From contig NZ_VFNC01000001.1 of the NCBI RefSeq assembly GCF_006715395.1, forward strand, positions 2,232,001 to 2,296,000: a stretch of DNA of 64,000 nucleotides. Direction: 5' to 3'. The position numbers were made by a program, and so were the translations under genes. Position 1 is the stretch's first letter; each line of letters begins with the position of its first letter. Positions 1-53,704 of the stretch are shown here, one piece after another. The stretch comes from Streptomyces sp. SLBN-31. Its GTDB lineage: Bacteria > Actinomycetota > Actinomycetes > Streptomycetales > Streptomycetaceae. The notes beneath the pieces were generated by a model, which was not told the DNA's origin, did no database searches, and saw only the letters and a program-made list of their open reading frames with translations.

Positions 1-88
1 CGTCGACGGTGTGACGGCACACGACGCGTGAATCGCCTCCTTCGGGCCGCCGCGATTTTCCGGGCTGCTCTTCTCTCAACGCAGAAGG

Positions 89-104
89 TTTTGCATAATG
101 CAAT
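89..104 (+). promoter_or_regulatory. TTTTGCATAATGCAA-type palindrome, site 1
   Basis: The sequence reads TTTTGCATAATGCAAT and lies 43 bases upstream of the GTG start of the membrane protein gene at 148. It is one of four near-identical copies in the window (also 3868, 5726 and 7882) and is AT-rich against a very GC-rich background. In the direction of the gene the centre reads TGCATAAT, which also resembles an extended -10 element. It could be an operator, a promoter core or both. The repetition is seen directly; the regulatory role is inferred. Confidence 0.6.
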
Positions 105-147
105 GGAAAGGTGAAGGGCTCTGCCGAACTCCGGCAGTGCTGACGAG

Positions 148-909
148 GTGAAAGCCGGTCCAACCGCGGGGCACGTCCCCGAGTGGTGGCTGGCAGACGG
201 ATGCGGGGGTGTGACGCGCGTGCGTCGCAAGGGTCGGCACTCGTCCCCCTCCCAGCCTCGCCTCATGGAGCATCTGCGGACTTCGGTATGGGGCCCGGCG
301 GAGTTCGTCGGGCGGCCACCCTGGTGGCTGGTGGGGGAGGGGCTCCTGGCGGCAGTACTCGGCGCCGGGGCGATCGTCGGTACGGCGCTTTTCGGTGCCT
401 GGACGGGCAGGCTCTCGCTGGCCGACGGCGAGGCGGGTCTTGTGTGCGCCGGAGCCCTGGCCCTGTATCTGTCTTTTGCCGGGGCCGGACGCGCACTGGT
501 CGGCATCGTCGCGTTGCTCGGTATGTGCCTCGCGCTGCAGGCTCCGCAGGCCGCGGCAGGCATGGTGCTGGCGGAACGGGGGCGGGTGCAGTCCGTGGTG
601 GTGACGTCGGTCGAGGACGGCCGGGCTTCGGACGGCTCCCCTGGCCGGTACCTGTGTTCGGTGGTGGACGCCGACGGTGTTCCGCTCAAGGTCCGCATCT
701 GGCGTGGCTGCGGGAAGACGACCCGGCCCGGAGACGCGCTCGCCGTCGTGGACGACCCGGAGGGACGGGTGCCCCCGCGCGGTGCGCAGACGGGGCCCAG
801 TGCCTCCGGGGCGCTGTTCGACATTGGCCCCTGGATCACAGCCCTCGCAGCCGCGACATTCCTCGCTGTCGTCCGCTCCTACCGGCTCTCCTACCCCGCC
901 AAGACCTGA
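148..909 (+). CDS. Membrane protein of unknown function
   Basis: A 253-residue protein. Residues from about 60 to 135 hold two or three hydrophobic helices. A polar, probably extracytoplasmic domain follows at about 140-225 with the look of a small beta domain (YLCSVVDADG, KVRIWRGCGK), and a last hydrophobic helix lies near the C-terminus (WITALAAATFLAVV). This helix-domain-helix plan resembles DUF3592-type proteins, but I do not recognise a specific family. The GTG start at 148 is preceded by GACGAG; GTG at 211 or ATG at 265 are possible alternatives. It sits just downstream of palindrome site 1 and converges with the DUF4142 gene. Confidence 0.65.
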   Translation: MKAGPTAGHVPEWWLADGCGGVTRVRRKGRHSSPSQPRLMEHLRTSVWGPAEFVGRPPWWLVGEGLLAAVLGAGAIVGTALFGAWTGRLSLADGEAGLVCAGALALYLSFAGAGRALVGIVALLGMCLALQAPQAAAGMVLAERGRVQSVVVTSVEDGRASDGSPGRYLCSVVDADGVPLKVRIWRGCGKTTRPGDALAVVDDPEGRVPPRGAQTGPSASGALFDIGPWITALAAATFLAVVRSYRLSYPAKT

Positions 910-944
910 AATCCGTCCGGCAGCGGTCAGGCAGACCGCGGTGA

Positions 945-1685
945 TCAGCGGGCCGACGGGCTGGGTGCCGGGGAGGCGGTGTTGATGTTCAGGTCGGGAC
1001 GGGGGGTGAGCACGGCGACCGGGGCGCCGGGTTGGGCCGCGGGTGGGGTGAGCTGCTCCTTGGGGAGTTTGGGCGGAGTGGTCTGCTGGAAGTTGACCTG
1101 GTCGAAGTTCACGACGCCGGTCTTCTCCAGCACGGTGATGTGGTCCAGGACGGTGTCGTTGGCCAGGTCGGCGAGCTGACGAACGAGCGTGTTCTTGGTG
1201 CTTGCGCGGATCTTGGCGATGGTGGGGAAGATCTGGCCGTGGGTGACGCGCATGATGTTGGCGGCGGTGGTGTCGAACTGTTTTCCGGACTCGGCCGCCG
1301 ACGTCTGCACGAACTGCTGCTGTTGCGGGGTGGCCTGGTTGGGCAGCGTGATGTTCAGCTCGGGGGCGATCTTGCGGCACAGCTCGTCGAGCCCGGCATG
1401 ACCGACGACCAGATGCCTGCCTGCCTCGCGCATCTCGGCAGTCGACCCCTTCTGGATCGCCAGCTCGCCCAGCGGGTACTCCCACAGCCCGGCTGAACGC
1501 ACCTTGACGACGAAGTCACGGTCGCCTTCGGTGAGCGGGCCGTACTGCGTGCTGGCGATGATCCGGTTCGGGTCGCTGGACACCTTCTGCACGCCGAGCA
1601 TGGCGGGGTAGGCGAGTGCGCTGAGGGTCAGTGCCAGCGCGCCGAGCACGACGACGGATCCGGCCTTGTTGTGTGAGATGGGCAT
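945..1685 (-). CDS. DUF4142 domain protein, paralogue 1
   Basis: A 246-residue exported protein. The N-terminus carries a short basic stretch and a hydrophobic helix (VVVLGALALTLSALAYPAML), likely a signal peptide or anchor. The rest is helical and contains the DUF4142 landmarks: DRDFVVKVRSAGLWE, the GRHLVVGHAGLDE segment and a late TVLDHITVLEKTG helix. The tail is Pro/Ala-rich. DUF4142 proteins are ferritin-like helical bundles of unknown function, often induced by stress. The start ATG at 1685 begins MPIS, as in the neighbouring paralogue. Its upstream region resembles that of the paralogue (a TTGC, GGTAAA, TTGCA series). Family assignment is firm; function is unknown. Confidence 0.85.
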   Translation of the reverse strand: MPISHNKAGSVVVLGALALTLSALAYPAMLGVQKVSSDPNRIIASTQYGPLTEGDRDFVVKVRSAGLWEYPLGELAIQKGSTAEMREAGRHLVVGHAGLDELCRKIAPELNITLPNQATPQQQQFVQTSAAESGKQFDTTAANIMRVTHGQIFPTIAKIRASTKNTLVRQLADLANDTVLDHITVLEKTGVVNFDQVNFQQTTPPKLPKEQLTPPAAQPGAPVAVLTPRPDLNINTASPAPSPSAR

Positions 1686-1800
1686 GCTGCCTCCAGACGC
1701 GAGCGGCTTGTACGTCCAGAGGTACGGGCAGGCCGGACGGGCCGATCATTGCGCTGGGTAAAATTTGCATGCCGGTGTGCCGTGCGTCGCATTGCTGAGG

Positions 1801-2565
1801 TCATCCGACGGTGGGAGCAGGGGACGCCGACGGCGTCGTGGCCGGACCCGTCGGTACGCCCCCGGTCGGCAGTCCGGGGGGCACGGTGAGAGTGACCATC
1901 GGTGCTCCGGGCTGCGGCACCGGAGGTGTGACCTGGCCGGAGGGGAGCTTCGGCGGGGTCGTCTCCTGGAAGTTGACCTGGGCGAAGTTGACCAGCCCGG
2001 TGTTCTCCATCTGCGTGATGTGGTCCAGGACCACGTCGTTGGCCTGGTCGGCCAACTGACGCACGAGGGCGTTCCGGGTGGTGGAGCGGATCTTGGCGAT
2101 GGTGTTGAAGATCGAGCCGTGAGTGACACGCAGGATGTTGGCGAAGTCGGAGTCGAACTGCTTGCCGGTGTCCGACTTGAACGTGTCCAGGAAGCCCTGC
2201 TGCTGCGGTGTGGGCTGGTTGGGGATGGTGATGTTCAGCTCCGGGGCGATCTTGCGACAGTTGGCGTCGAGCGCGGCGTGCCCGATGACCAGGTGCCGCC
2301 CGGCCTCGCGTACGGCCGCCGTCGTTCCCTTCTTCATCGCCAGGTCCCCTGAGGGGCCCTCCCACAGTCCGGCGGAGCGGACGAAGACGACGAAGTTGCG
2401 GTCGGCTTCGGTGAGTGGCCCCCATTGCGTGCTGGCGATCACGCGCGACTGGTTCGTGGACGCGTTCTGGATGCCGAGCATGCTCGGGTAGGCCAGCGCG
2501 GCGAGCGTGACGCTCAGGGCTCCGCCCACGAAGACGGTTCCGATCGTGTTGCGAGAGATGGGCAT
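1801..2565 (-). CDS. DUF4142 domain protein, paralogue 2
   Basis: A 254-residue paralogue of the gene at 945-1685, in tandem and on the same strand, with 115 bases between them. It has the same layout: MPIS start, hydrophobic N-terminal helix, DRNFVVFVRSAGLWE, GRHLVIGHAALD, VVLDHITQMENTG and a Pro-rich tail. The two proteins match along their whole length, so this is a tandem duplication that has diverged considerably. The open frame extends upstream to 3174, but the ATG at 2565 is chosen because it matches the paralogue and the signal-like helix. A partial palindrome (2645-2660) lies 80 bases upstream. Confidence 0.85.
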   Translation of the reverse strand: MPISRNTIGTVFVGGALSVTLAALAYPSMLGIQNASTNQSRVIASTQWGPLTEADRNFVVFVRSAGLWEGPSGDLAMKKGTTAAVREAGRHLVIGHAALDANCRKIAPELNITIPNQPTPQQQGFLDTFKSDTGKQFDSDFANILRVTHGSIFNTIAKIRSTTRNALVRQLADQANDVVLDHITQMENTGLVNFAQVNFQETTPPKLPSGQVTPPVPQPGAPMVTLTVPPGLPTGGVPTGPATTPSASPAPTVG

Positions 2566-3574
2566 GGCGCCTCCCGGTTTGGACGGTGGGTACGTCGGCA
2601 GGTACGGCCCCGCAACGGAAAGAGAACCCTTGCCCCAGGTAAAGCTTGCACTATGCCAAGCTGGGTGAGAGAAGCCGCCGATCATTGATGGTCCGCGCAG
2701 TCGCAGAGTGTTCGAGGGAGGGGCGGTATCTGTGGGGCAAGTGATGCGCCGATACAGCGAGGGAGGCGGCGCGCCTGTGGAAGTCGGTGACATGGGTGGC
2801 CGAACCGTTCGCAGGAGCCGGATACGGGTGACCATCGGAGAAGAGCGGATCGGAGCCGGGGAAAGAGACCCGGCCGGCGGCAGGAGCAACCTCGCTGTGG
2901 TGGCCGGAGACGTGTCGTCCGACGCGATCAAGTTGTTCAGGCAGCGGGTGTCGTCCGGCAGGCGCGGTTTCGGCGTGAGGCGGTATGTACGGCGTCCATG
3001 CCCGCGGTCGGCGTGCGGCCTGTTCGCGTCGCTGTCCTGGAGGGCCTGGGTCTCGTGCTGTTCAGTGCCTTTTCTGATACCGAACAGGTCCCCTTCGAAA
3101 GCCTGGACCGGCACGTCGGCCTGGCGCGGTGACTGTGACCCCGATGTTTCTGACCAGCATGGTGCCGCCCGCACAGATCACGTCGGCCGTGAGGGCCTGG
3201 TGCCGGGAGGTGCCACCGGCCTTGAGGGTCCTGCAGTTGGGGAGCTGGGTGTGTCGCCACCGAACATGTCGGTAGAAGCGTCGATCTTCCAGGCGATCGT
3301 GACACAGGCCGCCCGGGCGACCATTCGCCCGCGATGTCATCGAGCATGCACGCGGCGCCGCAGTGGCTGATGGCCTTGGCGGGGGCCGACCCCCCTGGGG
3401 CGGTTCCGACGGGTGCGGGCCGCCCCCCTTGCGTTCACCGGGCTGGATGTGTGGCGAGCGTGGCCTGGCTGACTCGGCGCATGCCGGAAGCTGTCACGTC
3501 GTCCTGGGCGCCGAGCTTGCGCAACAGCACCGCCAGCGCGGTCTGCAGGACCATCGGGGGTGGTTCTGCGGCCG
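2566..3574. other. About 1 kb without a recognisable gene
   Basis: Open frames exist on both strands (for example 2708-3370 plus), but none has a recognisable domain and they overlap extensively. The first 100 bases hold the promoter region of the second DUF4142 gene. The rest may be decayed coding sequence: one minus-strand stretch near 3430-3560 reads like a short amphipathic helical fragment, but I cannot assign it. Confidence 0.5.
2645..2660 (-). promoter_or_regulatory. Palindrome variant, site 2
   Basis: On the minus strand the sequence is CTTGGCATAGTGCAAG, a near-perfect inverted repeat with the same GCAT-A-GTGC core as the strong sites. It lies 80 bases upstream of the second DUF4142 gene. 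The first DUF4142 gene has only a shortened form (GGCATGCAAATTT, around 1763-1775) at the same distance. Role inferred from similarity to the other sites. Confidence 0.4.
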
Positions 3575-3820
3575 TCACCTCTCGTGCAGGCGCGCCGCCG
3601 CAACGCGCCCCGGCCGCATGATGCGTATCTTGCTGCTTTCGCAGGCGGGGCAGCGAGGCGACTGCAAGGGTGAGGGCACGAGTCTGGCGCCGAGGTGGTA
3701 GACGGCGGTAATCCGCGCGTGCTCGTCCACGGTCACGTCGACGTCGTACGTGTCCTCCCAGCCGTGTCCGCAGTCGAGGCACGCGAACGAGTAGGAGCGC
3801 TGGACGTGCTCTGTGTGCAT
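3575..3820 (-). CDS. Small zinc-ribbon protein
   Basis: An 81-residue protein with two CxxC pairs: FACLDCGHGW near residue 14 and PRCPACESSKI near residue 58. This is the arrangement of a compact zinc ribbon. The segment between them is beta-like (TYDVDVTVDEHARITAVYHL). A strong Shine-Dalgarno, GAGGAGGTGGGCC, immediately precedes the ATG at 3820. The full palindrome at 3868-3884 lies 48 bases upstream. Function is unknown; nucleic-acid or protein binding is possible for a ribbon of this size. Confidence 0.7.
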   Translation of the reverse strand: MHTEHVQRSYSFACLDCGHGWEDTYDVDVTVDEHARITAVYHLGARLVPSPLQSPRCPACESSKIRIMRPGRVAAARLHER

Positions 3821-3867
3821 GGCCCACCTCCTCGTGCGATCGGGATGTCCGGACTCTCTGTACCCAT

Positions 3868-3884
3868 TTTTGCACAGTGCAAAA
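3868..3884 (-). promoter_or_regulatory. Palindrome TTTTGCAC-A-GTGCAAAA, site 4
   Basis: A perfect 17-base inverted repeat centred on one base, located 48 bases upstream of the zinc-ribbon gene. The same flanks (TTTTGCA and TGCAAAA) occur at 5726 and 7882. Likely operator or promoter core (inferred). Confidence 0.6.
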
Positions 3885-3917
3885 GCAGGCGGTGGCTGGA
3901 GTCGCCTCCTGATGTCG

Positions 3918-5708
3918 TCAGGGAGTCGGGTGGACCGCGCGCAGCGCGCTTTGGTGGCTGAGCCAGCCGACCGGTTTCCCCTGCTCCGAGTCGAGGACAG
4001 GTACCCCCGTTCCGGCAGCTGACAGGAGGGCGTGCAGTGCCTGGCCGAGAGGCTGGTCGGCAAGTATGGGCGCCGGAGTCTCGGCGAGCTGTCCGACCTG
4101 CGTCGGCGCGTCTTCCGGCTGTTCCGCGAGTGCTTCGGCCACTGCCTGCGCGGTCACGACACCGGTGTACCCCCCGACGTCGTCGACGACCGGGAGGGCG
4201 CCGTGGCCGGACAGGCTCAGCAGGTCGGCGGCGTCCGCAAGGGCCGTTGACACAGTCAGCGGTGAGGGCAGCGGTTCCATGACGGCGCTGACGCGCTGGG
4301 TGCCGATGCGTGCGCCGGGGACGGGGCCTTCGAGGTCGATGCCGCGCCGGCGCAGCTTGAGGGTGTAGATCGTGTCGTGGGTCAGCAGGCGGCTGGTGGC
4401 CGTGGCCAGGACGATCGCGAGCATCAGCGGCAGGATGATCGAGTACTCGCCGGTGAGTTCGAAGAGGATGACCACGGCGGTGATCGGCGCGCGGGCCGCG
4501 CCGGCGAAGACGGCGCCCATGCCGACCAGCGCGTAGGCGCCCACCGCACCGGCGGAATGGGGCAGCAGGTGATGGACGCCGATGCCGTATGCCGAGCCCA
4601 GCATCGCGCCGATGAACAAACTGGGGGCGAACACCCCGCCCGAGCCGCCGATGCCGATGGTGAGGCTGGTCGCCAGCATCTTGCCCGCGAGCAGCAGGAG
4701 CAGGAAGCCGACCGCGTACTGGCCCTCGGTCGCCTTCTGGAGCACCGGGTATCCGACACCGTACATCTCCGGAAGGACCAGCAGCACCAGGCCGAGCGCG
4801 AGGCCGCCGACCGCCGGGCGCAGCCACTCCGGACCGCGCCAAAGCCAGTCGCAGGCGTCCTCGATCAGATACAGGAACCGGGAGAAGCCCACGCCCACCG
4901 CCGCGGCGCCGACGCCGAGCACGGCGAAGAGGCCGTACTGCGCGAGATGGTCCACGTGGAAGTCCGGAAGGCTCAAAAAGGCGCTGTTGCCGAAAGCGGC
5001 CCGCCCGATGATGCTCGCGGTGACGCTGGCCAGGACCGTCGCCCCGAAGGCCTCGGCGCTGAAGGTGCCCAGAATCAACTCCATCGCGAAGAACACGCCG
5101 GCCAGTGGGGCGTTGAAGGTGGCCGCGATGCCACCCGCCGCACCGCAGGCGACCAGCAGCTTCATCCGGCCCTCGGTCGCCTTCGTGACCCGGCCGAGCG
5201 TGGAGCCGAGAGCCGAGCCGATCTGCACGATCGGGCCCTCACGGCCCACCGAGCCGCCCGAGCCGATGCACAGGGCGGAGGCAAGCGTCTTGACCACGGC
5301 GACCTTGGGGCTGATCCGCCCGCCGCGCTGGGCTACGGCCAACATCACCTCTGGCACCCCGTGCCCGCGCGCCTCCTTGGCGAACCGGTTCACCAGCGGC
5401 CCGTACAGCAGGCCGCCGATCACCGGGGCCAGGAGCACGAAGTACGCGCCGAGCCACGGCACGTGCGGGTTGTCCGCGCCGGGGGAGGCGGCGTAGTCGG
5501 CGTGGCCGGAAAAGAGATGTGTGAAGGTCTTGATGCACCAGCGGAAGACGACCGAGCCCGCGCCGGCCCCGGCGCCGACCGCGACGGCGAGTGCCATCAG
5601 CCCCCGAGGGACGTTTCGAAGTCCCGCGAACCTTGGTGCGGGTGTGAAGCCATGAGTTGTGCTGCTGGACACGTGCTTCCCGTCGGTTGCTGCCGGTACG
5701 ACGCTCAT
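3918..5708 (-). CDS. ClC-family chloride channel/transporter with CBS domains
   Basis: A protein of about 596 residues that moves chloride across the cytoplasmic membrane. The ClC signature runs are present: GSGGSVGREGPIVQIGSALG (with the gating Glu in GREGP), the GSGGVFAPSLFIGAMLG loop and an N-terminal GAGAGSVVFRW segment. Roughly ten hydrophobic helices fill residues 30-440. The C-terminal 140 residues form a pair of CBS-like repeats (SAVMEPLPSPLTVS; then LAETPAPILADQPLGQAL), which usually bind adenine nucleotides. ATG at 5708 fits the AAGGGG ribosome site better than the GTG at 5714. The gene is divergent from the stress protein gene, and a perfect copy of the palindrome lies between them, 18 bases upstream of this start. 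Confidence 0.92.
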   Translation of the reverse strand: MSVVPAATDGKHVSSSTTHGFTPAPRFAGLRNVPRGLMALAVAVGAGAGAGSVVFRWCIKTFTHLFSGHADYAASPGADNPHVPWLGAYFVLLAPVIGGLLYGPLVNRFAKEARGHGVPEVMLAVAQRGGRISPKVAVVKTLASALCIGSGGSVGREGPIVQIGSALGSTLGRVTKATEGRMKLLVACGAAGGIAATFNAPLAGVFFAMELILGTFSAEAFGATVLASVTASIIGRAAFGNSAFLSLPDFHVDHLAQYGLFAVLGVGAAAVGVGFSRFLYLIEDACDWLWRGPEWLRPAVGGLALGLVLLVLPEMYGVGYPVLQKATEGQYAVGFLLLLLAGKMLATSLTIGIGGSGGVFAPSLFIGAMLGSAYGIGVHHLLPHSAGAVGAYALVGMGAVFAGAARAPITAVVILFELTGEYSIILPLMLAIVLATATSRLLTHDTIYTLKLRRRGIDLEGPVPGARIGTQRVSAVMEPLPSPLTVSTALADAADLLSLSGHGALPVVDDVGGYTGVVTAQAVAEALAEQPEDAPTQVGQLAETPAPILADQPLGQALHALLSAAGTGVPVLDSEQGKPVGWLSHQSALRAVHPTP

Positions 5709-5725
5709 CGCCACCCCTTCCCTGC

Positions 5726-5742
5726 TTTTGCATTATGCAAAA
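5726..5742. promoter_or_regulatory. Palindrome TTTTGCATTATGCAAAA, site 5
   Basis: A perfect 17-base palindrome in the 149-base gap between the divergent ClC and universal stress protein genes. Read toward the ClC gene it is TTTTGCATAATGCAAAA, identical in its core to sites 1 and 6. The 18-base distance to the ClC ATG would suit a repressor site or a very short leader. It is the best copy of the motif in the window. Confidence 0.65.
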
Positions 5743-5857
5743 CTAGTCAAGGGTGCGCGTCACAGGCCGTCGTCCGTCGATCGGGGCCGAAGGGCCCCTG
5801 GGGGCGCGGGCCGCCTCGCAGGAGAGTGAGCGCACGCACGAGCCGCGGAGGCGAACG

Positions 5858-6298
5858 GTGAACGATCGCACTTCCCCACCCTTGATCGTGGTAGGTGTCG
5901 ACGGGTCCGAGGCCAGCCGGGCGGCGCTGCGCTGGGCGGCCCGCCAGGCCGAACTGACCGGTGCGCAGCTACGCCCCGTCCAGGCGTGGCGGCTGCCGAC
6001 CACGTACGGCATGCCGGCTGACTACTCGGACACCGACTTTGAGAAACAGACCCGCGACAACCTGCGGCGCACCGTCGAGGAGACACTGGGAGAGCATCCG
6101 GATCTACCCGTAGACCCCCGGGTCGTCGAAGGTCATCCGGCGGCAGTGTTGACCGACACGGCGAGGGAGGCCGACCTGCTGGTCGTCGGCAGTCACGGGC
6201 ACGGCGCCTTCGCCGGAATGCTCCTCGGTTCGGTCAGTCACCACTGCGTGCACCACGCCACCTGCCCAGTCCTGGTCGTCCGGGCCGGCAACGCCTGA
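5858..6298 (+). CDS. Universal stress protein, single UspA domain
   Basis: A 146-residue cytoplasmic UspA-fold protein. It opens with the usual beta strand (PPLIVVGVDGSEASRAALRW) and ends with the ATP-binding motif GSHGHGAFAGMLLGS followed by CPVLVVRAG, so it is of the nucleotide-binding type. GTG at 5858 is chosen because GGAGG stands 7 bases before it and the Usp fold begins right after. It is divergent from the ClC gene and shares the region holding palindrome site 5. Proteins of this family accumulate in stress, hypoxia and stationary phase. Confidence 0.93.
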   Translation: MNDRTSPPLIVVGVDGSEASRAALRWAARQAELTGAQLRPVQAWRLPTTYGMPADYSDTDFEKQTRDNLRRTVEETLGEHPDLPVDPRVVEGHPAAVLTDTAREADLLVVGSHGHGAFAGMLLGSVSHHCVHHATCPVLVVRAGNA

Positions 6299-6312
6299 CT
6301 TTGCCGCCAGGG

Positions 6313-7713
6313 TCAGTCGGCTTCGGCGTGTGCCTCGACGTCCTCGATCCCGCTGGGGCGTCCGGCCCGTGTCCACCGGACGTACAGTCCGGCCGCGATG
6401 AGCAGGGTCGCCGCGAGGGAGAGCATGGGCCAGCCGCGCAGCAGGTTCACTGCGAGGGTGAAGGCGACGGCCGCGGCGGCCAGGCCGTTGACCCAGGCCA
6501 GGGCCGTCTTGTGCTCGCGGGTGGCGAAGCGGGCCATGGCCGCCAGCCCTACCAGGAAGCTCACGAACACCGCGACGGCGTAGAAGAGCACCAGCTCCTG
6601 TTCCTGGCCCGCCGCGGCCACGATGATCAGGGCGGCGGCGGCCAGGTAGACCACGACAGACCAGTACGGGGTGTGGTGGTGGTTGGTGCGGCCCAGCACC
6701 GGCGGCAGTACACCGGGCCGCTCGGCCGTGCCGGACAGGGCTTTGAGCAGTCCGGGTCCGGCCTGGAAGGAGGAGCTGGCGGCGGCGAGCAGCAGCAGTG
6801 AGCTGGTCAGCTGGAAGGCGCCGTAGAGCAAGCCCGGCCCGGTGGCGGCGTGCGCGATGTCGGCGATCTGGGTGGAGTCGGCGCCGGGGATGCCGATGTG
6901 GAGCCGGACGGCGAGTGCTGTCAGGGCCAGGGTCAGGCCGCCGACGATGACGAGCAACAGGGCGAGCGTGCCGCGGCCGAAGCGGCGCCGATGGGTGTCG
7001 TCGAGTTGGGCGAGCTGGGCGATCGCGGTGGAGGGGGCCTCGATGCCGGTGGCCAGTGCCATGGCGACCGGAAAGGCCAGGACCACGGCGAGCACGGCGG
7101 AGCGTCCGGGGTCGGTCGTGGCGGCTGCGTGCCCGGCGGCGTGGGGCGAGGTGAAGCCCAGGACGAGGATGGCCACGGAGATGACGACGAAGGCCACGGT
7201 CATGAACGCGAAGAGCAGCCGTCCGCCGTGCCCGAACCAGGTCAGTCCCGCCACCACCACGAGAAGCAGCAGCGCCAGCGGTATCCGCCAGGCCGCCAGA
7301 GCGGGGAACAGGGCGATGACCGCGCTGGCCGCCGCGGCGATCGAAATACCGATGGTCAGGACGAAGTCGACCACCAGGGCGCCGATGGGCAGGAACGTCC
7401 AGCGGGCGCCGAAGGCTCGCCCGGCCGCAGCTGCCGCGCCGCCGCCCTTGGGAAAGCGCCGCACGAGCTGCCAGTAGTTCGCGGTCACGACCACGACCAG
7501 TCCGATGACCAGGCTCATCGTCGGCAGCAGCAGGGCCAGGTCGCCGTGCAGGGCGCGCAGCGCCGCCTCGATCGCGTATGCCACCGAGGAGACCGGATCG
7601 GCGATCACCGCGAAGGCGAACGCGAAGAAGAGAACCGAACGGCGTGGGCCACGGCCGCGCGCGGCGGGTGACGGGGCGGCTGTGACGGCGGCAGCCGACT
7701 TCGAAGGGGTCAC
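6313..7713 (-). CDS. APC-superfamily amino acid permease
   Basis: A 466-residue membrane protein with about twelve hydrophobic helices. The first helix carries the unwound motif typical of APC carriers (FAVIADPVSSVAYAIEAALR), and a PKGGGAAAA loop follows the second. The C-terminus is short and acidic. Substrate is not clear from sequence; amino acids or polyamines are the usual choices. GTG at 7713 follows a GGAAGG ribosome site. The gene converges with the stress protein gene, leaving only 14 bases between the two stops. Confidence 0.85.
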   Translation of the reverse strand: MTPSKSAAAVTAAPSPAARGRGPRRSVLFFAFAFAVIADPVSSVAYAIEAALRALHGDLALLLPTMSLVIGLVVVVTANYWQLVRRFPKGGGAAAAAGRAFGARWTFLPIGALVVDFVLTIGISIAAAASAVIALFPALAAWRIPLALLLLVVVAGLTWFGHGGRLLFAFMTVAFVVISVAILVLGFTSPHAAGHAAATTDPGRSAVLAVVLAFPVAMALATGIEAPSTAIAQLAQLDDTHRRRFGRGTLALLLVIVGGLTLALTALAVRLHIGIPGADSTQIADIAHAATGPGLLYGAFQLTSSLLLLAAASSSFQAGPGLLKALSGTAERPGVLPPVLGRTNHHHTPYWSVVVYLAAAALIIVAAAGQEQELVLFYAVAVFVSFLVGLAAMARFATREHKTALAWVNGLAAAAVAFTLAVNLLRGWPMLSLAATLLIAAGLYVRWTRAGRPSGIEDVEAHAEAD

Positions 7714-7881
7714 GCGAAGACCTTCCTTGATGTCCTTGCGGACGCTTCATCCAGGCACTTCGCCGACCCGTCTTCCCGGCACACCGCTGTCGATGCTACG
7801 TCAAGAAGCCGTCGAGACGGCGTTAGAAAGGCATCAAGATTCCCGGGTATCGGTCCGCGTGACCAGGCTTCTTGCCGAAAG

Positions 7882-7898
7882 CTTTGCATAATGCAAAA
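7882..7898 (+). promoter_or_regulatory. Palindrome CTTTGCATAATGCAAAA, site 6
   Basis: This copy differs from the 17-base palindrome by one terminal base and lies 47 bases upstream of the FAD monooxygenase ATG. The spacing is almost the same as for sites 1 (43) and 4 (48), which supports a shared promoter or operator function. Confidence 0.62.
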
Positions 7899-7945: not shown

Positions 7946-9133
7946 ATGAAAGCAGTGATCTGCGGGGCCGGTATCGCCGGACTGGCGCTGGCCGGCCGCC
8001 TGCACAACGTGCTCGGCTGGGAGGTCGTGGTGCTGGAGAAAGCGCCGCAGCCCCGCGCCGAGGGATGCATGGTCGATTTCTCCGGGCCGGGCTACGACGC
8101 GGCCGAGGCCATGGGTGTGCTCCCCTGGCTGGAGGAGCTGAGCTACCCGGTCTCCGAGGCGGCCTTCCTCGACGAGGACGGCCGGTGCCGGGCTCGGCTC
8201 GACTACGACCGTCTCGCCCGCTCCGTGAACGGGCGCCTGCTGAGCATCATGCGGCCGGACCTCGAACTCGCCCTGCGGGAAGGGCTGTCCCTTGCCGTCG
8301 GCCTTCGCTTCGGCGTCGGCCCGGCACGGATCGACCCGAGCACCTATGGCGTCCGCGTCACCCTCACCGACGGCAGCGTCCTCGACGCCGATCTCCTCGT
8401 GGGAGCCGACGGTCTCCACTCCACCGTACGGGCCATGGTCTTCGGCGAGGAACAGCGATATGTGCGTTACCTCGGCTACCACACCGCCGCATTCACCTTC
8501 GATGACCCGTACGTGCACGCGGAACTGGGCAACCGCTTCTGCCTCACCGACACCGCCGAGCGGCAGATGGGCCTGTACGCCCTGCGCGACGGCACGGTCG
8601 CCGCGTTCGCCGTCCACCGCAGCGCCGATCCCCGCCGCCCCGACGACGCACGGGCCGCCTTGTACCACGAGTACGGCACCCTCGGCTGGCTCGTCCCTCG
8701 CGTCCTGGCGGCCTGCCCGCCGCCCCCGAGGGTCTACTACGATCAGGTCGCCCAGACGGACCTGCCCTCCTGGAGCCGCGGGCGGGTCGTGCTGGTGGGT
8801 GACGCCTGCCAAGCCGTCTCGCTCGTGGCGGGGCAGGGTGCCTCGCTTGCGATCGCCGGCGCCTATGTCCTGGTCGACCAGCTCGCCGGCGCCCGCCGGG
8901 TCGAGGACGCGCTGCACGGCTACGAGCGCATATGGCGCCCGGTCATCACCGACAGACAGCGCGCTGCCCGCCGAACGGCCCGCTGGTTCGTCCCCGAATT
9001 CCGGCGGCACCTGCGGGTCCGCCGTGCCGCCCTGCGCTTCGTCGGCCTGCCGGGCCTGAGCTGTCTCGCCGGCACTTCGCTGACGGGGAAGCAGCGGCCG
9101 CTTCTGCGGCAACTCGCCGCAGTGCCCGCTTAG
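7946..9133 (+). CDS. FAD-dependent monooxygenase (PHBH-like)
   Basis: A 395-residue flavoprotein of the aromatic hydroxylase class. Residues 1-20 give the dinucleotide-binding start (MKAVICGAGIAGLALAGRL). A DADLLVGADGLHS segment is the DG motif near residue 150. GRVVLVGDACQAVSLVAGQG near residue 275 is the second FAD motif, with CQ where most relatives have AH. The likely reaction is NAD(P)H- and O2-dependent hydroxylation of a small molecule; substrate unknown. It stands alone behind palindrome site 6. Confidence 0.85.
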   Translation: MKAVICGAGIAGLALAGRLHNVLGWEVVVLEKAPQPRAEGCMVDFSGPGYDAAEAMGVLPWLEELSYPVSEAAFLDEDGRCRARLDYDRLARSVNGRLLSIMRPDLELALREGLSLAVGLRFGVGPARIDPSTYGVRVTLTDGSVLDADLLVGADGLHSTVRAMVFGEEQRYVRYLGYHTAAFTFDDPYVHAELGNRFCLTDTAERQMGLYALRDGTVAAFAVHRSADPRRPDDARAALYHEYGTLGWLVPRVLAACPPPPRVYYDQVAQTDLPSWSRGRVVLVGDACQAVSLVAGQGASLAIAGAYVLVDQLAGARRVEDALHGYERIWRPVITDRQRAARRTARWFVPEFRRHLRVRRAALRFVGLPGLSCLAGTSLTGKQRPLLRQLAAVPA

Positions 9134-18060: not shown

Positions 18061-18365
18061 GGTGGCTGACCTCGCTGCGTAGCGGAGAAGAGGGGAGCAC
18101 CGCCCCGACAGCGTGCGCTCCTGGCACGCGAGCGGCTGGCGGACCGGGGGAGAGGTGTCCCCCGCGGCCGGTGGCGAAACTCAAGGAACTGCCAGGGCGG
18201 GGCGACAGGTGCCCATGGCGGGCGCGTGGCCTTATCCACCGTGGTCCGCGCATGGCGCGGCGCGCACGTCGAACCAGTTCGCACCGCCGACCGGTACATC
18301 CCCTCCTGCTGGGCTGCCAGCTTCCCGGCGGCATCTTTCCTGACCGTACGCCGGGGCGGAGACCG
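18061..18365. other. 305 bases without a recognisable gene
   Basis: The gap separates the damaged SDR gene from the HPP gene; both are on the minus strand. No coding signal or strong hairpin was seen. Confidence 0.45.
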
Positions 18366-25354: not shown

Positions 25355-26088
25355 GAGCGGTTCACCTCCGATTGGCCCGCGGGCGAGTCGGATCCCGCCG
25401 GAAAGAGCTGAGGCCACTACGGCCGCCGACGGGAGTCCCCGTGTGGGCCGGACTTGAAACGGGGAGGCCTTACCGTTCACGCGTCCGTGTCCGCATGACC
25501 GACGGTGCATGTATCCCCGTGCCGCCAAGGACGCCTTCTTGAACGGCAAGAATGATGTGAGCGCGTCACCGGGGCGGTATTGGCTGCTGCCCGTGTGCTA
25601 GCCGGGGAAACCGTCGGGAGACGCTGTTGCAGGCCTGCGGGACGGACCGGCGCCGGGCGAGGACGGCCCGGGGCTCTTTCCGCTCGGCGGCGGACGCCGA
25701 CCCCCAGGCCTCCGGAGGCAACCGGGGGCCTGCTCGCCGACCGTCTCGGCAGACGCTCACCCGCCGCCGCGTCGACCAAGAGAACCGAGAGAAGTTGGGA
25801 GCTGTCGGCTTCGGTCTTAGCCTGTCGAGGAGTACGGAGTCGGCTGGTCGGCTTACGTTCGGCGGTCGCGCGGCACGCCACAGCCTCAGGGCGCCGGGTA
25901 GCGGCCAGCGGAGGCCGCGTGGATTACAGCCATGGCCGACCGGTCGGTGTGCCGAAAGGAAGCGGCCCCGCGCCTGAGCGCTCCGGAGGAACACAGGACA
26001 CCTGCCGAAAGAGTGATCTTTGCATGGGCTAAGAGAAAACGGGAACCCCTGTCCATGCCCAGGAACCAGCCGACCGCCAGAGGCTCAC
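25355..26088. other. About 0.7 kb upstream region without a gene
   Basis: The gap lies between the divergent cytochrome b and sigma factor genes. No convincing coding sequence was seen. Near 26019-26030 there is TTTGCATGGGCT, a half-match to the window's palindrome, about 60 bases before the sigma gene; a similar half-site precedes the second sigma gene. Confidence 0.5.
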
Positions 26089-27546
26089 ATGACGTCCCTC
26101 AGCAGTCCCAGCGGATCGCCGACGCAGGTGAGCGACGGGGCCGACCTGTCGCCGCAGCTGATCGACGACCTCGTGGGCGCCGTCAGCCGGATGCCTCCGG
26201 GCCGGGAGCGGGAGGCCGCCCGCGACGACGTCATCCGTCGGCTCGTTCCCTTGGCGCGCCGCATCGCCGGCAAATACCGCAACGCCGGCGGCGAAGAGCA
26301 GGACGACCTCTTCCAGGTGGCCTGCCTGGGACTGGTCAAGGCCGTCGACGGCTACGACCCGGAACGGGGCCACGCCTTCCTGTCCTACGCCCTGCCCACG
26401 GTCACCGGAGAGCTGAAGCGGCACCTACGGGACAGGACCGGACTGGTGCGGCTACCGCGTCCCGTGCAGGAAGCCAGACAGCGCGTGAACCGGGTGCAGA
26501 GGGAGCTCGAGCAGCAGTTCGGCGGACGACCGCCCACACCGGCGGAGATCGCGCGGACATGCGGCCTACCCGACGAAGCGGTGGCTGAGGCCCTGTGCTG
26601 CGAGTGGGCGCTGCGCCTTCGGCCGCTGGAGATGCCGGCGGGCGGCACCGACCGGAGACGCCTGGCCCCCGCCGAAGTGATGGGAGACCACGACACGGCC
26701 CTGGAGTTCACCGCGGAACGCCTGGCCCTCATGCAGGCCCTGCGGCAACTCCCGGAAAGAGAACGGCGCATCCTGTTCCTGCGTTTCTTCCACGACCAGA
26801 CACAGCGGGAGATCGCAGCGGCCGTCGGGATCTCGCAGATGCACGTGTCCCGGCTGCTCGCTCGCTGTCTCACCCGGCTGCGCGAGTTGCTGGTCGAGGA
26901 GGTGGACTCGCCGGTCACCGGAACAGGCGCTTGTGCAGGTGCGGACTCCCTTGCTGAAAGTGCCGTGCCACGCCGGGCGGAGGCCCGCAGCACGCCGGTG
27001 TCCTCCAACTCGGCATGGAACGGCCGGGACGCCGAGCGGCCGCGCCGCGATGCCGGTCGGCGGCTGCCTGCGCCACGGATCCGCCGAGACGGTCAGAAGC
27101 ATGCGCGCACTGACTGTCCCTCCCGGCCACTGCTGCTCGCTCGACATCCCGGACCTGGCGAATCCCGGCAACGCATGTGGCGAACTCCTGGTCCGGGTCG
27201 TAGCCCTCGGCGTGCGCGGTACGGGCCGGGAGATCGCTCCGGGGCAGTACGGGTAGGCTCCGCCGGAGCGCGACCGGCTCATCCCGGGGCACGAGTCGCT
27301 CGGCCGCGCGGAAGAGGCCCCGGACGGCTACGCGGTGCAGTTGTGGTCCGCGGAAGCCGATTGCGCGGTCGCTGCCGACGCTGGCCTGGGCCTTGCGGCC
27401 GTAGTCACAAAACCGGCGAGCGTCGTCGCCAGGGCGTGAGGGCAGATCGACAAGGTTGGGACCAGGGCTTGGTTCGAGCCCCACCAAGCGGCCATCAGCC
27501 CGATCGGCCCGGCTCACTTATCACACCACCACGGTGGAGGACTTGA
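26089..27546 (+). CDS. SigB/SigF-type sigma factor with long run-on tail
   Basis: Residues 1-280 are a complete stress-type sigma factor. Region 2 includes EEQDDLFQVACLGLVKAVDGY and HAFLSYALPTVTGELKRHLR. Region 3 follows with PTPAEIARTCGLPDEAVAEA. Region 4 has LPERERRILFLRFF and the HTH QREIAAAVGISQMHVSRLLA. The frame then continues for about 200 residues with no homology, crossing a glucose dehydrogenase pseudogene in a different frame. The natural stop appears to have been lost. The ATG at 26089 has a weak ribosome site. It would redirect RNA polymerase to stress promoters. Confidence 0.85.
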   Translation: MTSLSSPSGSPTQVSDGADLSPQLIDDLVGAVSRMPPGREREAARDDVIRRLVPLARRIAGKYRNAGGEEQDDLFQVACLGLVKAVDGYDPERGHAFLSYALPTVTGELKRHLRDRTGLVRLPRPVQEARQRVNRVQRELEQQFGGRPPTPAEIARTCGLPDEAVAEALCCEWALRLRPLEMPAGGTDRRRLAPAEVMGDHDTALEFTAERLALMQALRQLPERERRILFLRFFHDQTQREIAAAVGISQMHVSRLLARCLTRLRELLVEEVDSPVTGTGACAGADSLAESAVPRRAEARSTPVSSNSAWNGRDAERPRRDAGRRLPAPRIRRDGQKHARTDCPSRPLLLARHPGPGESRQRMWRTPGPGRSPRRARYGPGDRSGAVRVGSAGARPAHPGARVARPRGRGPGRLRGAVVVRGSRLRGRCRRWPGPCGRSHKTGERRRQGVRADRQGWDQGLVRAPPSGHQPDRPGSLITPPRWRT

Positions 27547-46134: not shown

Positions 46135-46184
46135 ACGCGGACACCCCGCCATCCGCGGGGTGTCCGCGTCTACCGTGCCGTCAG
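46120..46184. terminator. Bidirectional terminator with 29-bp perfect stem
   Basis: Two perfect 29-base arms (46120-46148 and 46156-46184, starting CTGACGGCACGG) are separated by 7 bases. It lies between convergent genes, with the hemerythrin stop inside the left arm and the sigma factor stop inside the right arm. There is no T tract on either side. Its strength and place argue for termination on both strands, though the length is unusual. Confidence 0.8.
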
Positions 46185-46987
46185 CCGGCCAGGAGGCTGC
46201 GGCGCAGAAGCGCACAGGATCGGTTGAGGAGCCGTGACACGTGCATCTGTGAGATGCCGACGATGTCCCCCACCTCCCGCTGAGTCAGGGCGTTGAAGAA
46301 GTACAGGCACACCACGGCCCGTTCTCGCTCCGGCAGCTTCGGCAGGGCCGAGCCCAGCGCCACCATGTCGGTGACCAGGTCCAGGCGGGGGTCCTCCGTG
46401 CCGAGGGTCGTCGCCAGCGAAGCGCTCCTGCCGGGGCCGCGTTGCTCGTCCATCGAGACGAGACGGCGAGCCTGGTCGGCCCGCAGGGCGAGCCTGATGT
46501 CCTCCTCGTCGATCCCCGTGAGGTTCTTCAGGTCGCCTACGGTGCCGCCCCGGCCGTCCCCGGACCGGCGTATCTCCTCCTGGGCCCGGCGGACCTCACG
46601 GTGTTTTTCTTGCACCCGGCGTGGCACGTGGACCTGCCACGTGTGGTCGCGCAGGTGGCGTTTGACCTCACCGTCGATCGTGGGCACGGCGTACGACAGA
46701 AAGGCGTGCCCACGGGAAGGGTCGAAGCGGTCCACGGCCTTGACCAGTCCCAGGCACGCCACCTGGTAGAGGTCTTCCCGGTTCTCGGGAGGGCAGCCGT
46801 AGCGACGGGCGATCCGGCGGGCCACCGGCAGGAAGGCGATGATGGCATGTTCCCGCAGGGATTCACGCTCCGGCCCGGGCGGGCAGGCGGCCATGCGGTG
46901 AACGAGCTGTTCCTCGGGTGTCCGGTCGCCGGGGGCCTGCTGCCGAGGAGACGGCGCGGTGTCGTGGGGGGTGGCGGAAACGTTCAT
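46181..46987 (-). CDS. SigB/SigF-type sigma factor
   Basis: A 268-residue sigma factor of normal length. Region 2: NREDLYQVACLGLVKAVDRF and HAFLSYAVPTIDGEVKRHLR. Region 3 is shorter. Region 4: LPERERAVVCLYFF and QREVGDIVGISQMHVSRLLN. It is a divergent paralogue of the one at 26089. Such factors in Streptomyces respond to osmotic and oxidative stress and are normally held by anti-sigma proteins; none is encoded beside it. A weak palindrome-like site (TTTGCATAGGACAAA on the minus strand) lies about 95 bases upstream. The last codons sit in the terminator stem. Confidence 0.92.
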   Translation of the reverse strand: MNVSATPHDTAPSPRQQAPGDRTPEEQLVHRMAACPPGPERESLREHAIIAFLPVARRIARRYGCPPENREDLYQVACLGLVKAVDRFDPSRGHAFLSYAVPTIDGEVKRHLRDHTWQVHVPRRVQEKHREVRRAQEEIRRSGDGRGGTVGDLKNLTGIDEEDIRLALRADQARRLVSMDEQRGPGRSASLATTLGTEDPRLDLVTDMVALGSALPKLPERERAVVCLYFFNALTQREVGDIVGISQMHVSRLLNRSCALLRRSLLAG

Positions 46988-47080: not shown

Positions 47081-47095
47081 TTTGTCCTATGCAAA
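47081..47095 (-). promoter_or_regulatory. Degenerate palindrome upstream of sigma factor
   Basis: On the minus strand this reads TTTGCATAGGACAAA, which keeps TTTGCATA and CAAA of the consensus with three changes between. It is about 95 bases upstream of the sigma factor start at 46987. Weak; listed because the other sigma gene also has a TTTGCATGGG half-site. Confidence 0.3.
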
Positions 47096-52845: not shown

Positions 52846-52910
52846 CTGCTCTCTTTCTCTTGGGGCTCTTTGCCTACCTCTCGCGTATCCACCCAGAGCG
52901 AGCGGAATCA

Positions 52911-52923
52911 TGGCACAGTGCAA
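52911..52923 (-). promoter_or_regulatory. Palindrome variant upstream of the SPW gene, site 9
   Basis: On the minus strand the sequence is TTGCACTGTGCCA: the same TTGCAC-T-GTGC core as site 4, with one arm shortened. It lies 66 bases upstream of the SPW gene and is flanked by an AT-rich tract (CAATTATTTTTTTG on the plus strand), rare in this genome. Confidence 0.4.
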
Positions 52924-53129
52924 TTATTTTTTTGCTCTTTCCTGCTGTACCCCTGGTCCGCCAAGGTGCCGTGGTGACCACTGGAACCGCCCTGGAGGAG
53001 CGCCGCAAGGGTGGATCCGGCCTTGATCGGTAACAGCGGATTCCGTGGGTCGCTTCTTGTGATCGTTGCATTCTCTAAAGGGTCGGCCAGACCATGCACG
53101 AGAGGAGCGCCGCAGGTTCAGCCCGATGG

Positions 53130-53560
53130 TGTCGGTGGCGGGCGTCGCCGCGGCGGGCGTCGCGGCGGCGGTGATGCGCTCGCGCCGGGAGCCGGAACTG
53201 GCCAGCGTGCACTCGATCGCGGAGGTGCCGCAGCGGGTGTCGCTGCGCCCGGTGCCGTGTCCCGTGCGTCCGCTGCAGGCGGCGGTGTCGTGTATGTCGG
53301 CGGTTGCCGGGGCGCGCATCGGTGGGTGACCTGTACGAGGTGGTTGCCTCGCCGCACGAAATCCGGGGGGGGCATCGTCGGGAGGTACCGGGCAAGAGGT
53401 CGGCCACGGGGGTGGCCGGCGCCTTCCGGTAGACGGCCCACGGCGAGCCCGATATCGCCGGGCTCGGCGAGCGTCTGGAGCGCAGTGGGGCCTGGGAGCC
53501 GGAGCGGGAGGAGTTCGTCACCGCTTTGCCGGCCGGATCGGCGAGCCCCAGGAGGTCGCC
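53130..53560 (+). pseudogene. PP2C/SpoIIE-type serine phosphatase remnant
   Basis: Short pieces of the phosphatase domain can be read: SVHSIAEVPQRVSLRPVP, then ARIGGDLYEVVASPH (the metal-binding GGD block) in the next frame after an extra G near 53328, and DIAGLGERLERS with EFVTALPA further on. A stop lies between them and the C-terminal half is missing. Such phosphatases act on anti-anti-sigma factors in the SigB/SigF network, which fits the two sigma genes nearby. Confidence 0.6.
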
Positions 53561-53704
53561 TAACGCCAGGGAAACTACACCCGTGCGGCGTAGCCGGCAC
53601 CGACCCGGACATGCCGCGAAGGGCGGCCGCCGCCGACGAGCCCGGCAGGGAATAGACGGCCGTGGGTCAGCCGTCGCCTCCGACGCGCTCGCCGCCCTCC
53701 TTAC

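What the first reader, a model, noticed from the sequence alone, without database searches (positions are those of the whole stretch)
89..7898. Repeated AT-rich palindrome TTTTGCATAATGCAAAA suggests an unrecognised regulon
Four strong copies (89, 3868, 5726, 7882) lie 18-48 bases upstream of genes with unrelated functions: a membrane protein, a zinc-ribbon protein, a ClC channel (and divergent Usp), and an FAD monooxygenase. Weaker copies precede a DUF4142 gene (2645), the SPW gene (52911) and one sigma factor (47081), with half-sites before the other DUF4142 gene and the first sigma factor (26019). All are intergenic, near starts, and AT-rich in a GC-rich genome. I do not recognise it as the site of a known Streptomyces regulator. 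In three strong copies the centre reads TGCATAAT in the direction of the gene, so operator and -10 element may overlap.
Basis: partly seen in the sequence, partly recalled or inferred. Interest (0 to 1): 0.78.

Follow-up and report, generated by a model that had tools for sequence, protein, structure and literature searches.

The report
Operator of a local MarR-type regulon
The repeated palindrome is very probably the docking site of one MarR-family switch protein, whose gene sits across the left edge of the window and which appears to control a small set of stress and detoxification genes in many Streptomyces.

Summary
In detail: four strong palindromes sit at the stated places (0.01 expected per window) and a fifth lies 2.25 kb left of it. 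In the 9.47 Mb genome all five exact cores (TTGCAYNRTGCAA) fall within 10.2 kb, so the regulon is local. The likely binder is a MarR-family protein encoded at window -505..31, cut by the window's edge. All 14 motif-bearing genomes among 150 Streptomyces carry this marR; none of the 90 marR-negative ones has the motif. Clustering of genes near the motif finds marR in 16 of 16 locus groups and no other regulator in four or more. A matrix from 33 motif-selected sites finds sites in 33 of 40 loci chosen by the marR protein alone, and none in 598 kb of control DNA. ClC promoters keep the site in 15 of 15 marR-positive genomes and 0 of 3 marR-negative ones. Closest solved relative: Rv1404 (54% identity), whose recognition helix differs. 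DNA binding, repression and the signal are inferred, not shown.

The parts
1..31 (+). 3' end of the marR gene (whole gene window -505..31 = C1:2231495-2232031); proposed binding protein
   Evidence: Pfam MarR PF01047 E 6.7e-13; present in 16 of 16 motif-selected locus groups
89..105 (.). operator TTTTGCATAATGCAATG, 29.8 bits
   Evidence: site of >=12 bits before 18 of 24 homologues of the WGPAEF gene
148..909 (+). membrane protein ('WGPAEF' family, no Pfam match); start may be 265
945..1685 (-). DUF4142 protein, second copy
   Evidence: PF13628 E 3.2e-15
1749..1761 (.). degenerate site, 9.1 bits, 63 bp upstream of the DUF4142 gene at 1685
   Evidence: same place in L296
1801..2565 (-). DUF4142 protein, first copy
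   Evidence: PF13628 E 8.7e-18
2646..2658 (.). operator variant TTGCACTATGCCA, 20.1 bits
   Evidence: sites of >=12 bits before 15 of 31 DUF4142 homologues
3575..3820 (-). zinc-ribbon protein, 81 aa
   Evidence: weak Zn_ribbon_8 match below cut-off
3868..3884 (.). operator TTTTGCACAGTGCAAAA, 30.3 bits
   Evidence: site before 8 of 10 homologues, core 47-52 bp from the start
3918..5708 (-). ClC chloride channel/transporter with CBS domain
   Evidence: Voltage_CLC E 1.2e-101
5726..5742 (.). operator TTTTGCATTATGCAAAA, 33.9 bits
   Evidence: ClC site in 15 of 15 marR-positive and 0 of 3 marR-negative genomes
5858..6298 (+). universal stress protein, divergent from ClC, 115 bp from the operator
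   Evidence: Usp E 4.1e-33; site shared with L296 only, of 3 homologues counted with this genome
6313..7713 (-). multi-pass membrane protein (APC-permease-like by eye; no Pfam or NCBIfam match)
   Evidence: shares the divergent site here and in L143 and L148, 3 of 5 homologues
7882..7898 (.). operator CTTTGCATAATGCAAAA, 35.6 bits
   Evidence: site of >=12 bits near 7 of 7 monooxygenase homologues, one of them (L147, 13.3 bits) doubtful in place
7946..9133 (+). FAD-dependent monooxygenase
   Evidence: FAD_binding_3 E 3.9e-16
26020..26032 (.). degenerate site, 7.3 bits, upstream of the sigma factor at 26089; not confirmed
   Evidence: no site at the G003 homologue, a marR-negative genome
46181..46894 (-). 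sigma-70-family sigma factor (start may lie further upstream)
   Evidence: Sigma70_r2 and r4
47082..47094 (.). site TTGTCCTATGCAA, 17.1 bits
   Evidence: two sites each upstream of the orthologues in L356 and L357, none in L358
52420..52791 (-). SPW-repeat protein
   Evidence: SPW E 4.7e-19
52911..52923 (.). operator variant TGGCACAGTGCAA, 18.9 bits
   Evidence: sites of >=12 bits before 5 of 5 SPW homologues, this one included
53066..53078 (.). degenerate site, 7.1 bits, at a broken SpoIIE-like stretch

Best explanation
The palindrome is the operator of one MarR-family winged-helix protein encoded at window -505..31. A homodimer puts its two recognition helices on the half-sites TTTTGC/GCAAAA, which are separated by 5 bp. 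Bound there it covers the promoter or transcript start and most likely represses about ten transcription units of this region: a SpoIIE-type phosphatase with marR itself (conserved variant site TTGCATAGTCTAA), a divergent F420H2-quinone-reductase-like gene, an FAD monooxygenase, a ClC chloride transporter with a divergent Usp, a zinc ribbon, DUF4142 and SPW proteins and other small proteins, and one sigma factor. A stress signal, most likely a small aromatic or quinone-like compound, possibly acid, would release the dimer. Shown by computation: the motif, its confinement to this region, its conservation, its co-occurrence with marR, and its target set. Inferred: DNA binding by this protein, repression, and the signal.
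For: Loci fetched by motif alone hold marR in 15 of 16; the exception, L146, lies on the same contig as L145. Clustering of all called genes there: marR in 16 of 16 locus groups (this genome included), ClC in 12, no other regulator in 4 or more. Genomes: motif in 14 of 60 marR-positive and 0 of 90 marR-negative (Fisher 9.7e-7, nominal because the genomes are related). Reverse test: a matrix from 33 motif-selected sites finds a site of >=12 bits in 33 of 40 loci chosen by marR protein, 64 sites in 742 kb; controls 0 in 399 kb of own genome and 0 in 199 kb at 55 sigma-gene loci of relatives (the three close orthologues of the regulated sigma factor and the own loci left out). ClC chosen by ClC protein: site in 15 of 15 marR-positive genomes that have the ClC 5' end, none in 3 marR-negative ones. 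Site columns 0.95 identical against 0.51 and 0.60 in the flanks of ClC promoters. Only 1 of 56 exact sites lies in a called ORF though 72% of those loci is coding. Sites lie upstream of marR itself in 16 of 79 rows, e.g. L152, L298, L297. In other families the site moves with the protein: L285, L287 and L288 have 18.8-24.1 bits upstream of marR; in L292-L294 three of five sites read TTGTAYNRTACAA and two mix TTGTA with TGCAA, with a changed recognition helix. The protein is a MarR by Pfam, model and structure match.
Against: No binding or expression data exist here. 7 of 40 marR-selected Streptomyces loci have no site of >=12 bits, nor do L299, and L295 of the TTGTA family. Five of eight mycobacteria-like loci (L284, L286, L289, L290, L291) have marR but not this motif. 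The G077 sigma orthologue lacks a site. About half of DUF4142 (16 of 31) and SpoIIE-like (20 of 41) homologues lack a site of >=12 bits. The genomes are related, so co-occurrence is partly inheritance. The target functions do not point to one signal.
Confidence: 0.88

Rival explanations
1. Another DNA-binding protein, for example the TetR-family protein at window -3697..-3053, binds the palindrome, and marR is only a linked passenger.
For: A TetR gene lies in the same cluster, and TetR sites are also palindromes (recalled).
Against: No regulator other than marR occurs in 4 or more of the 16 motif-selected locus groups. The site follows marR into other families and changes along with its recognition helix. 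marR has the site before itself in several genomes.
Confidence: 0.05
2. The motif is a promoter element (a -10 such as CATAAT read by a dedicated sigma factor), not an operator.
For: The centre base keeps its orientation towards the gene in all 31 aligned ClC and WGPAEF promoters, and a TTGAC lies nearby in 9 of 14 ClC promoters.
Against: A two-fold symmetric 17-mer with inverted half-sites is not a sigma signature. Zinc-ribbon sites mostly read CACTGTG (5 of 7), without an A/T-rich centre. The distance to the start varies from under 20 to over 200 bp between target classes. The most likely truth is that operator and promoter overlap.
Confidence: 0.04
3. Same operator and regulator, but the system is a pH-responsive counterpart of the Rv1404 acid-stress circuit, with ClC as acid-resistance effector.
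For: Closest solved relative is Rv1404 (54% identity over 147 residues), described as an acid-stress regulator (passages of PMC5936775 and PMC6536590; the original paper was not seen). E. coli ClC proteins act in acid resistance (recalled).
Against: The recognition helix differs (APSTAMRM against QPSATGRM), the four loci with the QPSATGRM helix lack this operator, and widely shared targets are an F420H2-quinone-reductase-like gene and an FAD monooxygenase.
Confidence: 0.25
4. The copies are a small mobile palindromic repeat, or chance AT-rich sequence.
For: The copies are short and alike, in one region.
Against: Identity falls off at the edge of the site, the sites recur at orthologous promoters, the reversed-pattern control gives 0 in 150 genomes, and shuffles give 0.01.
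Confidence: 0.01

Closest known systems
Rv1404 (M. tuberculosis MarR-family regulator, PDB 2nyx)
   Same: Closest solved relative: phmmer E 1.5e-43, 54% identity over 147 residues. Described in citing papers as controlling adjacent genes in acid stress (passages).
   Different: Recognition helix QPSATGRM instead of APSTAMRM. The four loci here with that helix, all with a methyltransferase gene beside marR, lack this operator. Rv1404 targets are reported as two methyltransferases (passage).
CouR of Rhodococcus jostii (MarR family)
   Same: Same operator geometry: its box is cATTGA-N5-TCAATg, 6+5+6 bp, overlapping promoter elements (passage); here TTTTGC-N5-GCAAAA.
   Different: Different half-site. 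CouR controls p-hydroxycinnamate catabolism and answers to p-coumaroyl-CoA (abstract and passages).
SCO3205 (S. coelicolor MarR family, PDB 3zpl)
   Different: 20% identity. Its operators are described by a TT/AA palindrome (passage); the full operator sequence was not seen.
MalR of Corynebacterium glutamicum
   Same: Actinobacterial MarR regulator in an operon with a universal stress protein, with an AT-rich palindromic motif and stress targets (passages).
   Different: More than 60 targets across its genome; its motif letters were not seen. Sequence similarity was not tested.

Membership tests
MarR family of transcriptional regulators | MarR winged-helix domain | tested here: met
MarR family of transcriptional regulators | Inverted-repeat operator near its own and neighbouring genes | tested here: met
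   6+5+6 bp palindrome; sites before marR or the SpoIIE-marR unit and neighbours
MarR family of transcriptional regulators | Homodimer that binds the operator | not testable with these tools
   No binding data; symmetry of the site is consistent
MarR family of transcriptional regulators | DNA binding changed by a ligand or by oxidation | not testable with these tools
   No ligand known; a conserved cysteine switch is unlikely, 70 of 76 homologues have no Cys
Rv1404 subgroup | Sequence similarity well above other MarR proteins of known structure | tested here: met
   E 1.5e-43 against 5.7e-11 for the next PDB sequence
Rv1404 subgroup | Recognition helix of the Rv1404 type | tested here: not met
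   APSTAMRM here, QPSATGRM there
Rv1404 subgroup | Same operator in loci with the QPSATGRM helix and methyltransferase neighbours | tested here: not met
   L284, L286, L290, L291 lack the motif
OhrR-type MarR (thiol switch) | Conserved reactive cysteine (defining feature recalled) | tested here: not met
   No Cys in 70 of 76 homologues, none in this protein
NCBIfam equivalogs (HpaR, BilQ, Rv0880 type and others) | Score above curated cut-off | tested here: not met
   Best match 40.7 bits against cut-off 230

The most novel reading that the evidence does not exclude
A widespread but patchy actinobacterial one-component switch sits above a sigma-factor/SpoIIE phosphatase cascade, and its operator alphabet has drifted together with the recognition helix: TTGCA with (A/N)PSTAMRM in Streptomyces, TTGTA with HPSTATRM in a second family, TAGCAC/TGCAA with QPS(S/T)TGRM in mycobacteria-like genomes, and no such site with QPSATGRM. 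Two proteins do not fit simply: L289 (QPSTTGRM) and L295 (HPSTATQM) have no detectable site. The family would then be a natural series for reading MarR specificity, and the MarR would couple chemical sensing to the general stress response.
Probability: 0.4. Interest if true: 0.65.

Novelty: new member of a known kind. Interest (0 to 1): 0.52.

Why it matters
It turns an anonymous palindrome into a nearly complete, testable regulatory circuit: binding protein, operator matrix, target list and co-occurrence controls. It puts several genes of unknown purpose (DUF4142, SPW, the WGPAEF membrane family, a zinc ribbon) under one switch together with flavin- and F420-linked redox genes, ClC and a sigma factor, which gives a lead to their shared condition. 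It also offers a natural series of operator and recognition-helix variants in the family around Rv1404.

Tried and rejected
Rfam on the window at gathering thresholds: no match. Paper searches for the motif letters and for MarR with Streptomyces plus DUF4142, SpoIIE, deazaflavin, acid stress/chloride or stress-protein terms found no report of this motif or regulon; only an open-licence library was searched, and papers were seen as listings, abstract starts or passages. TetR as binder: rejected. Genome-wide regulon: rejected. Thiol-switch MarR: rejected. Known arginine-repressor and DevR/OsdR-type sites were considered from memory only and not tested. The first F420-reductase-like query was in the wrong reading frame; those rows are discarded and were redone. 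The same call counts a broken SpoIIE-like copy of the window (68%) among its 41 SpoIIE rows, and its distances rest on extrapolated starts (5 of 16 ClC rows come out negative). The sigma factor at 26089 as a target stays unconfirmed. Gene starts come from my own simple ORF caller and may be off. Of the marR matches I fetched regions for the motif-bearing ones and 40 more; the rest, mainly of low identity, were left out.
Full report
Observation. A whole-genome pattern scan (9.47 Mb; the window is C1:2232001-2296000) with up to 3 mismatches finds 6 places, 5 of them within 10.2 kb, against 2 for the reversed control; the fifth strong copy lies 2.25 kb left of the window. The exact core TTGCAYNRTGCAA occurs 5 times in the genome, all in this cluster. 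One mismatch adds 5 places, 3 of them local (window -8891, 2646, 52911); all three carry the same TGCCA/TGGCA half. The reversed core gives 6 at up to one mismatch, so the one-mismatch hits tell by position and not by number. The motif is therefore local.

Relatives. In 150 Streptomyces genomes drawn evenly from the genus, the 17-mer TTTTGCAYNRTGCAAAA with up to 1 mismatch occurs in 14 (own genome included), while the reversed pattern gives none. I fetched 16 regions of about 20 kb around the sites of the 13 other genomes. They contain orthologues of the window's genes with a site upstream: ClC, FAD monooxygenase, zinc ribbon, the WGPAEF membrane protein, DUF4142 and SPW.

The regulator. One gene is common to these loci: a MarR-family protein 63-89% identical (tblastn) to the product of window -505..31, in 15 of 16 loci; the exception, L146, lies on the same contig as L145. 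Clustering all called genes gives marR in 16 of 16 locus groups (this genome being one), ClC in 12, SpoIIE-like in 9, and no other regulator in 4 or more. A protein search of the same 150 genomes finds marR at E <= 1e-25 in 60. All 14 motif genomes are among them and none of the 90 others has the motif (Fisher 9.7e-7; nominal, since the genomes are related).

Reverse test. I then fetched 40 further loci chosen by the marR protein, not all of the remaining matches: most lower-identity ones were left out. They hold 23 exact core sites in 743 kb against 0 for the reversed core; with one mismatch 16 against 2. 18 of 40 loci have an exact core. A matrix from the 33 motif-selected sites finds at least one site of 12 bits or more in 33 of 40 of these loci (64 sites), 0 in 399 kb of this genome's control DNA and 0 in 199 kb at 55 sigma-gene loci of relatives (left out: this genome's two loci and the three close orthologues of the sigma factor at 46181). 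Of 56 exact sites 1 lies in a called ORF, while 72% of those loci is coding. Seven loci remain without a site.

This genome scored with foreign sites. A 21-bp matrix from 56 sites, none from this genome, gives 10 sites of at least 15 bits in 104 kb, against a best of 6.7 in 400 kb of control: window 7884 (35.6), 5728 (33.9), -2250 (32.4), 3870 (30.3), 91 (29.8), 2646 (20.1), 52911 (18.9), 47082 (17.1), -8891 (16.0), -1715 (15.4); then 1749 (9.1), 26020 (7.3), 53066 (7.1). These are core starts; none of the 13 lies in a called gene.

Targets. Homologues with a site of at least 12 bits in the 350 bp upstream (to 60 bp inside), counted over all loci held, motif-selected ones and this genome included: ClC 16 of 16, FAD monooxygenase 7 of 7 (one doubtful), SPW 5 of 5, the small protein gene at -8913 4 of 4, zinc ribbon 8 of 10, the membrane protein at L008:16973-17530 8 of 10, WGPAEF 18 of 24, SpoIIE-like 21 of 41 (one row is the broken copy in the window), DUF4142 15 of 31, marR's own upstream 16 of 79, F420H2-quinone-reductase-like 25 of 32. 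That last label rests on Pfam PF04075 matches of three homologues; the copy in this genome has no Pfam match. Divergent genes share sites, so the rows are not independent. The SpoIIE-marR unit carries the variant core TTGCATAGTCTAA in 15 of its 21 rows, with GGGTAA about 36 bp further upstream in 12 of 19 aligned promoters (the resemblance of GGGTAA to a sigma-B-type -10 is recalled). The 17-mer CTTTGCATAGTCTAAAG occurs once in the genome, at this unit, plus one place with 3 mismatches at a broken SpoIIE-like stretch in the window.

Independent ClC test. Searching by ClC protein gives 19 of 150 genomes with a match at E <= 1e-120. In the 15 marR-positive genomes whose ClC 5' end is present, every ClC has a site of 25 bits or more upstream; four of these (G023, G069, G090, G148) had not been picked up by the motif scan. 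The 3 marR-negative genomes (60-61% identical ClC) have no hit of 3 bits or more. A 16th marR-positive genome (G144) holds only a ClC fragment and was set aside.

Trans target. The sigma factor at 46181-46894 has close orthologues (64-69%) in three of the other 149 genomes, all marR-positive. Two of them have two sites each upstream (26.0 and 20.3; 26.0 and 13.9 bits) on contigs other than those of their marR matches (G106: C37 against C24 and C4; G148: C33 against C14, C2 and C5; draft contigs). The third (G077) has none.

Beyond the genus. In 296 genomes of the class, marR occurs in 47. I fetched 20 regions. Three of the eight (L285, L287, L288) have 18.8-24.1-bit sites in front of marR, shared with a divergent FAD monooxygenase (L285, L288) or a PF04075 protein (L287). 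The five with the methyltransferase neighbour do not; four of these have the helix QPSATGRM, one (L289) QPSTTGRM. In another family (L292-L294) three of five sites read TTGTAYNRTACAA and two mix TTGTA with TGCAA, before marR and before ClC, with the helix HPSTATRM; L295 of the same family (HPSTATQM) has none. The f4 genomes were only compared; no work with that germ is proposed.

Mechanism. In aligned ClC promoters the site columns are 95% identical and the flanks 51-60%, so selection acts on the site. The short, class-specific distances from core to start (ClC 16-26 bp in the 11 of 16 rows with a usable start, zinc ribbon 47-52 bp in 8, DUF4142 63-80 bp in 13 of 15) fit an operator overlapping promoter or transcript start, hence repression; this is inference. 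The centre base is A in the gene's direction in 31 of 31 ClC and WGPAEF sites, as if the operator doubles as a -10 element, but transcript starts are unknown. Widely shared targets are redox and flavin enzymes, so I rate an aromatic or quinone-like ligand most likely (about 0.5) and acid second (about 0.25).

Novelty. The kind is known: a MarR protein with a local operator set. I found no report of this regulon in the open-licence library; papers were seen as listings, abstract starts or passages only.

Noticed in passing
window about 52868-53700 (+): A second SpoIIE-like stretch (68% identity to the SpoIIE gene at window -1595) that is interrupted by stops in all three forward frames, next to a degenerate site of the SpoIIE type at 53066.
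   Followed up: partly
L008 about 18237-18245 and relatives (upstream of SpoIIE): GGGTAA about 36 bp upstream of the operator in 12 of 19 aligned SpoIIE promoters; looks like a sigma-B-type -10 element (recalled), which would join general stress control with this MarR.
   Followed up: no
MarR residues 165-168: A low-confidence C-terminal tail ends in PLGW in the Streptomyces homologues shown; L292-L295 keep LGW, and the f4 proteins lack it.
   Followed up: no
G146, G080, G079, G097, G108, G366: Several Streptomyces genomes carry two or three close marR copies, some with separate site clusters (G146: contigs C2 and C20); only 60 of 150 genomes have marR, so the cluster seems to come and go.
   Followed up: partly
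L321/L324 (G007:C1:6909192-6910957): The ClC gene matches as two separate open frames in this relative although its operator is intact.
   Followed up: no
window -3697..-5182 (L008): A TetR-family regulator followed by an ABC transporter pair lies beside the cluster; ABC ATPases (loosely clustered) recur in 6 of 16 motif locus groups, the TetR gene in fewer than 4.
   Followed up: partly
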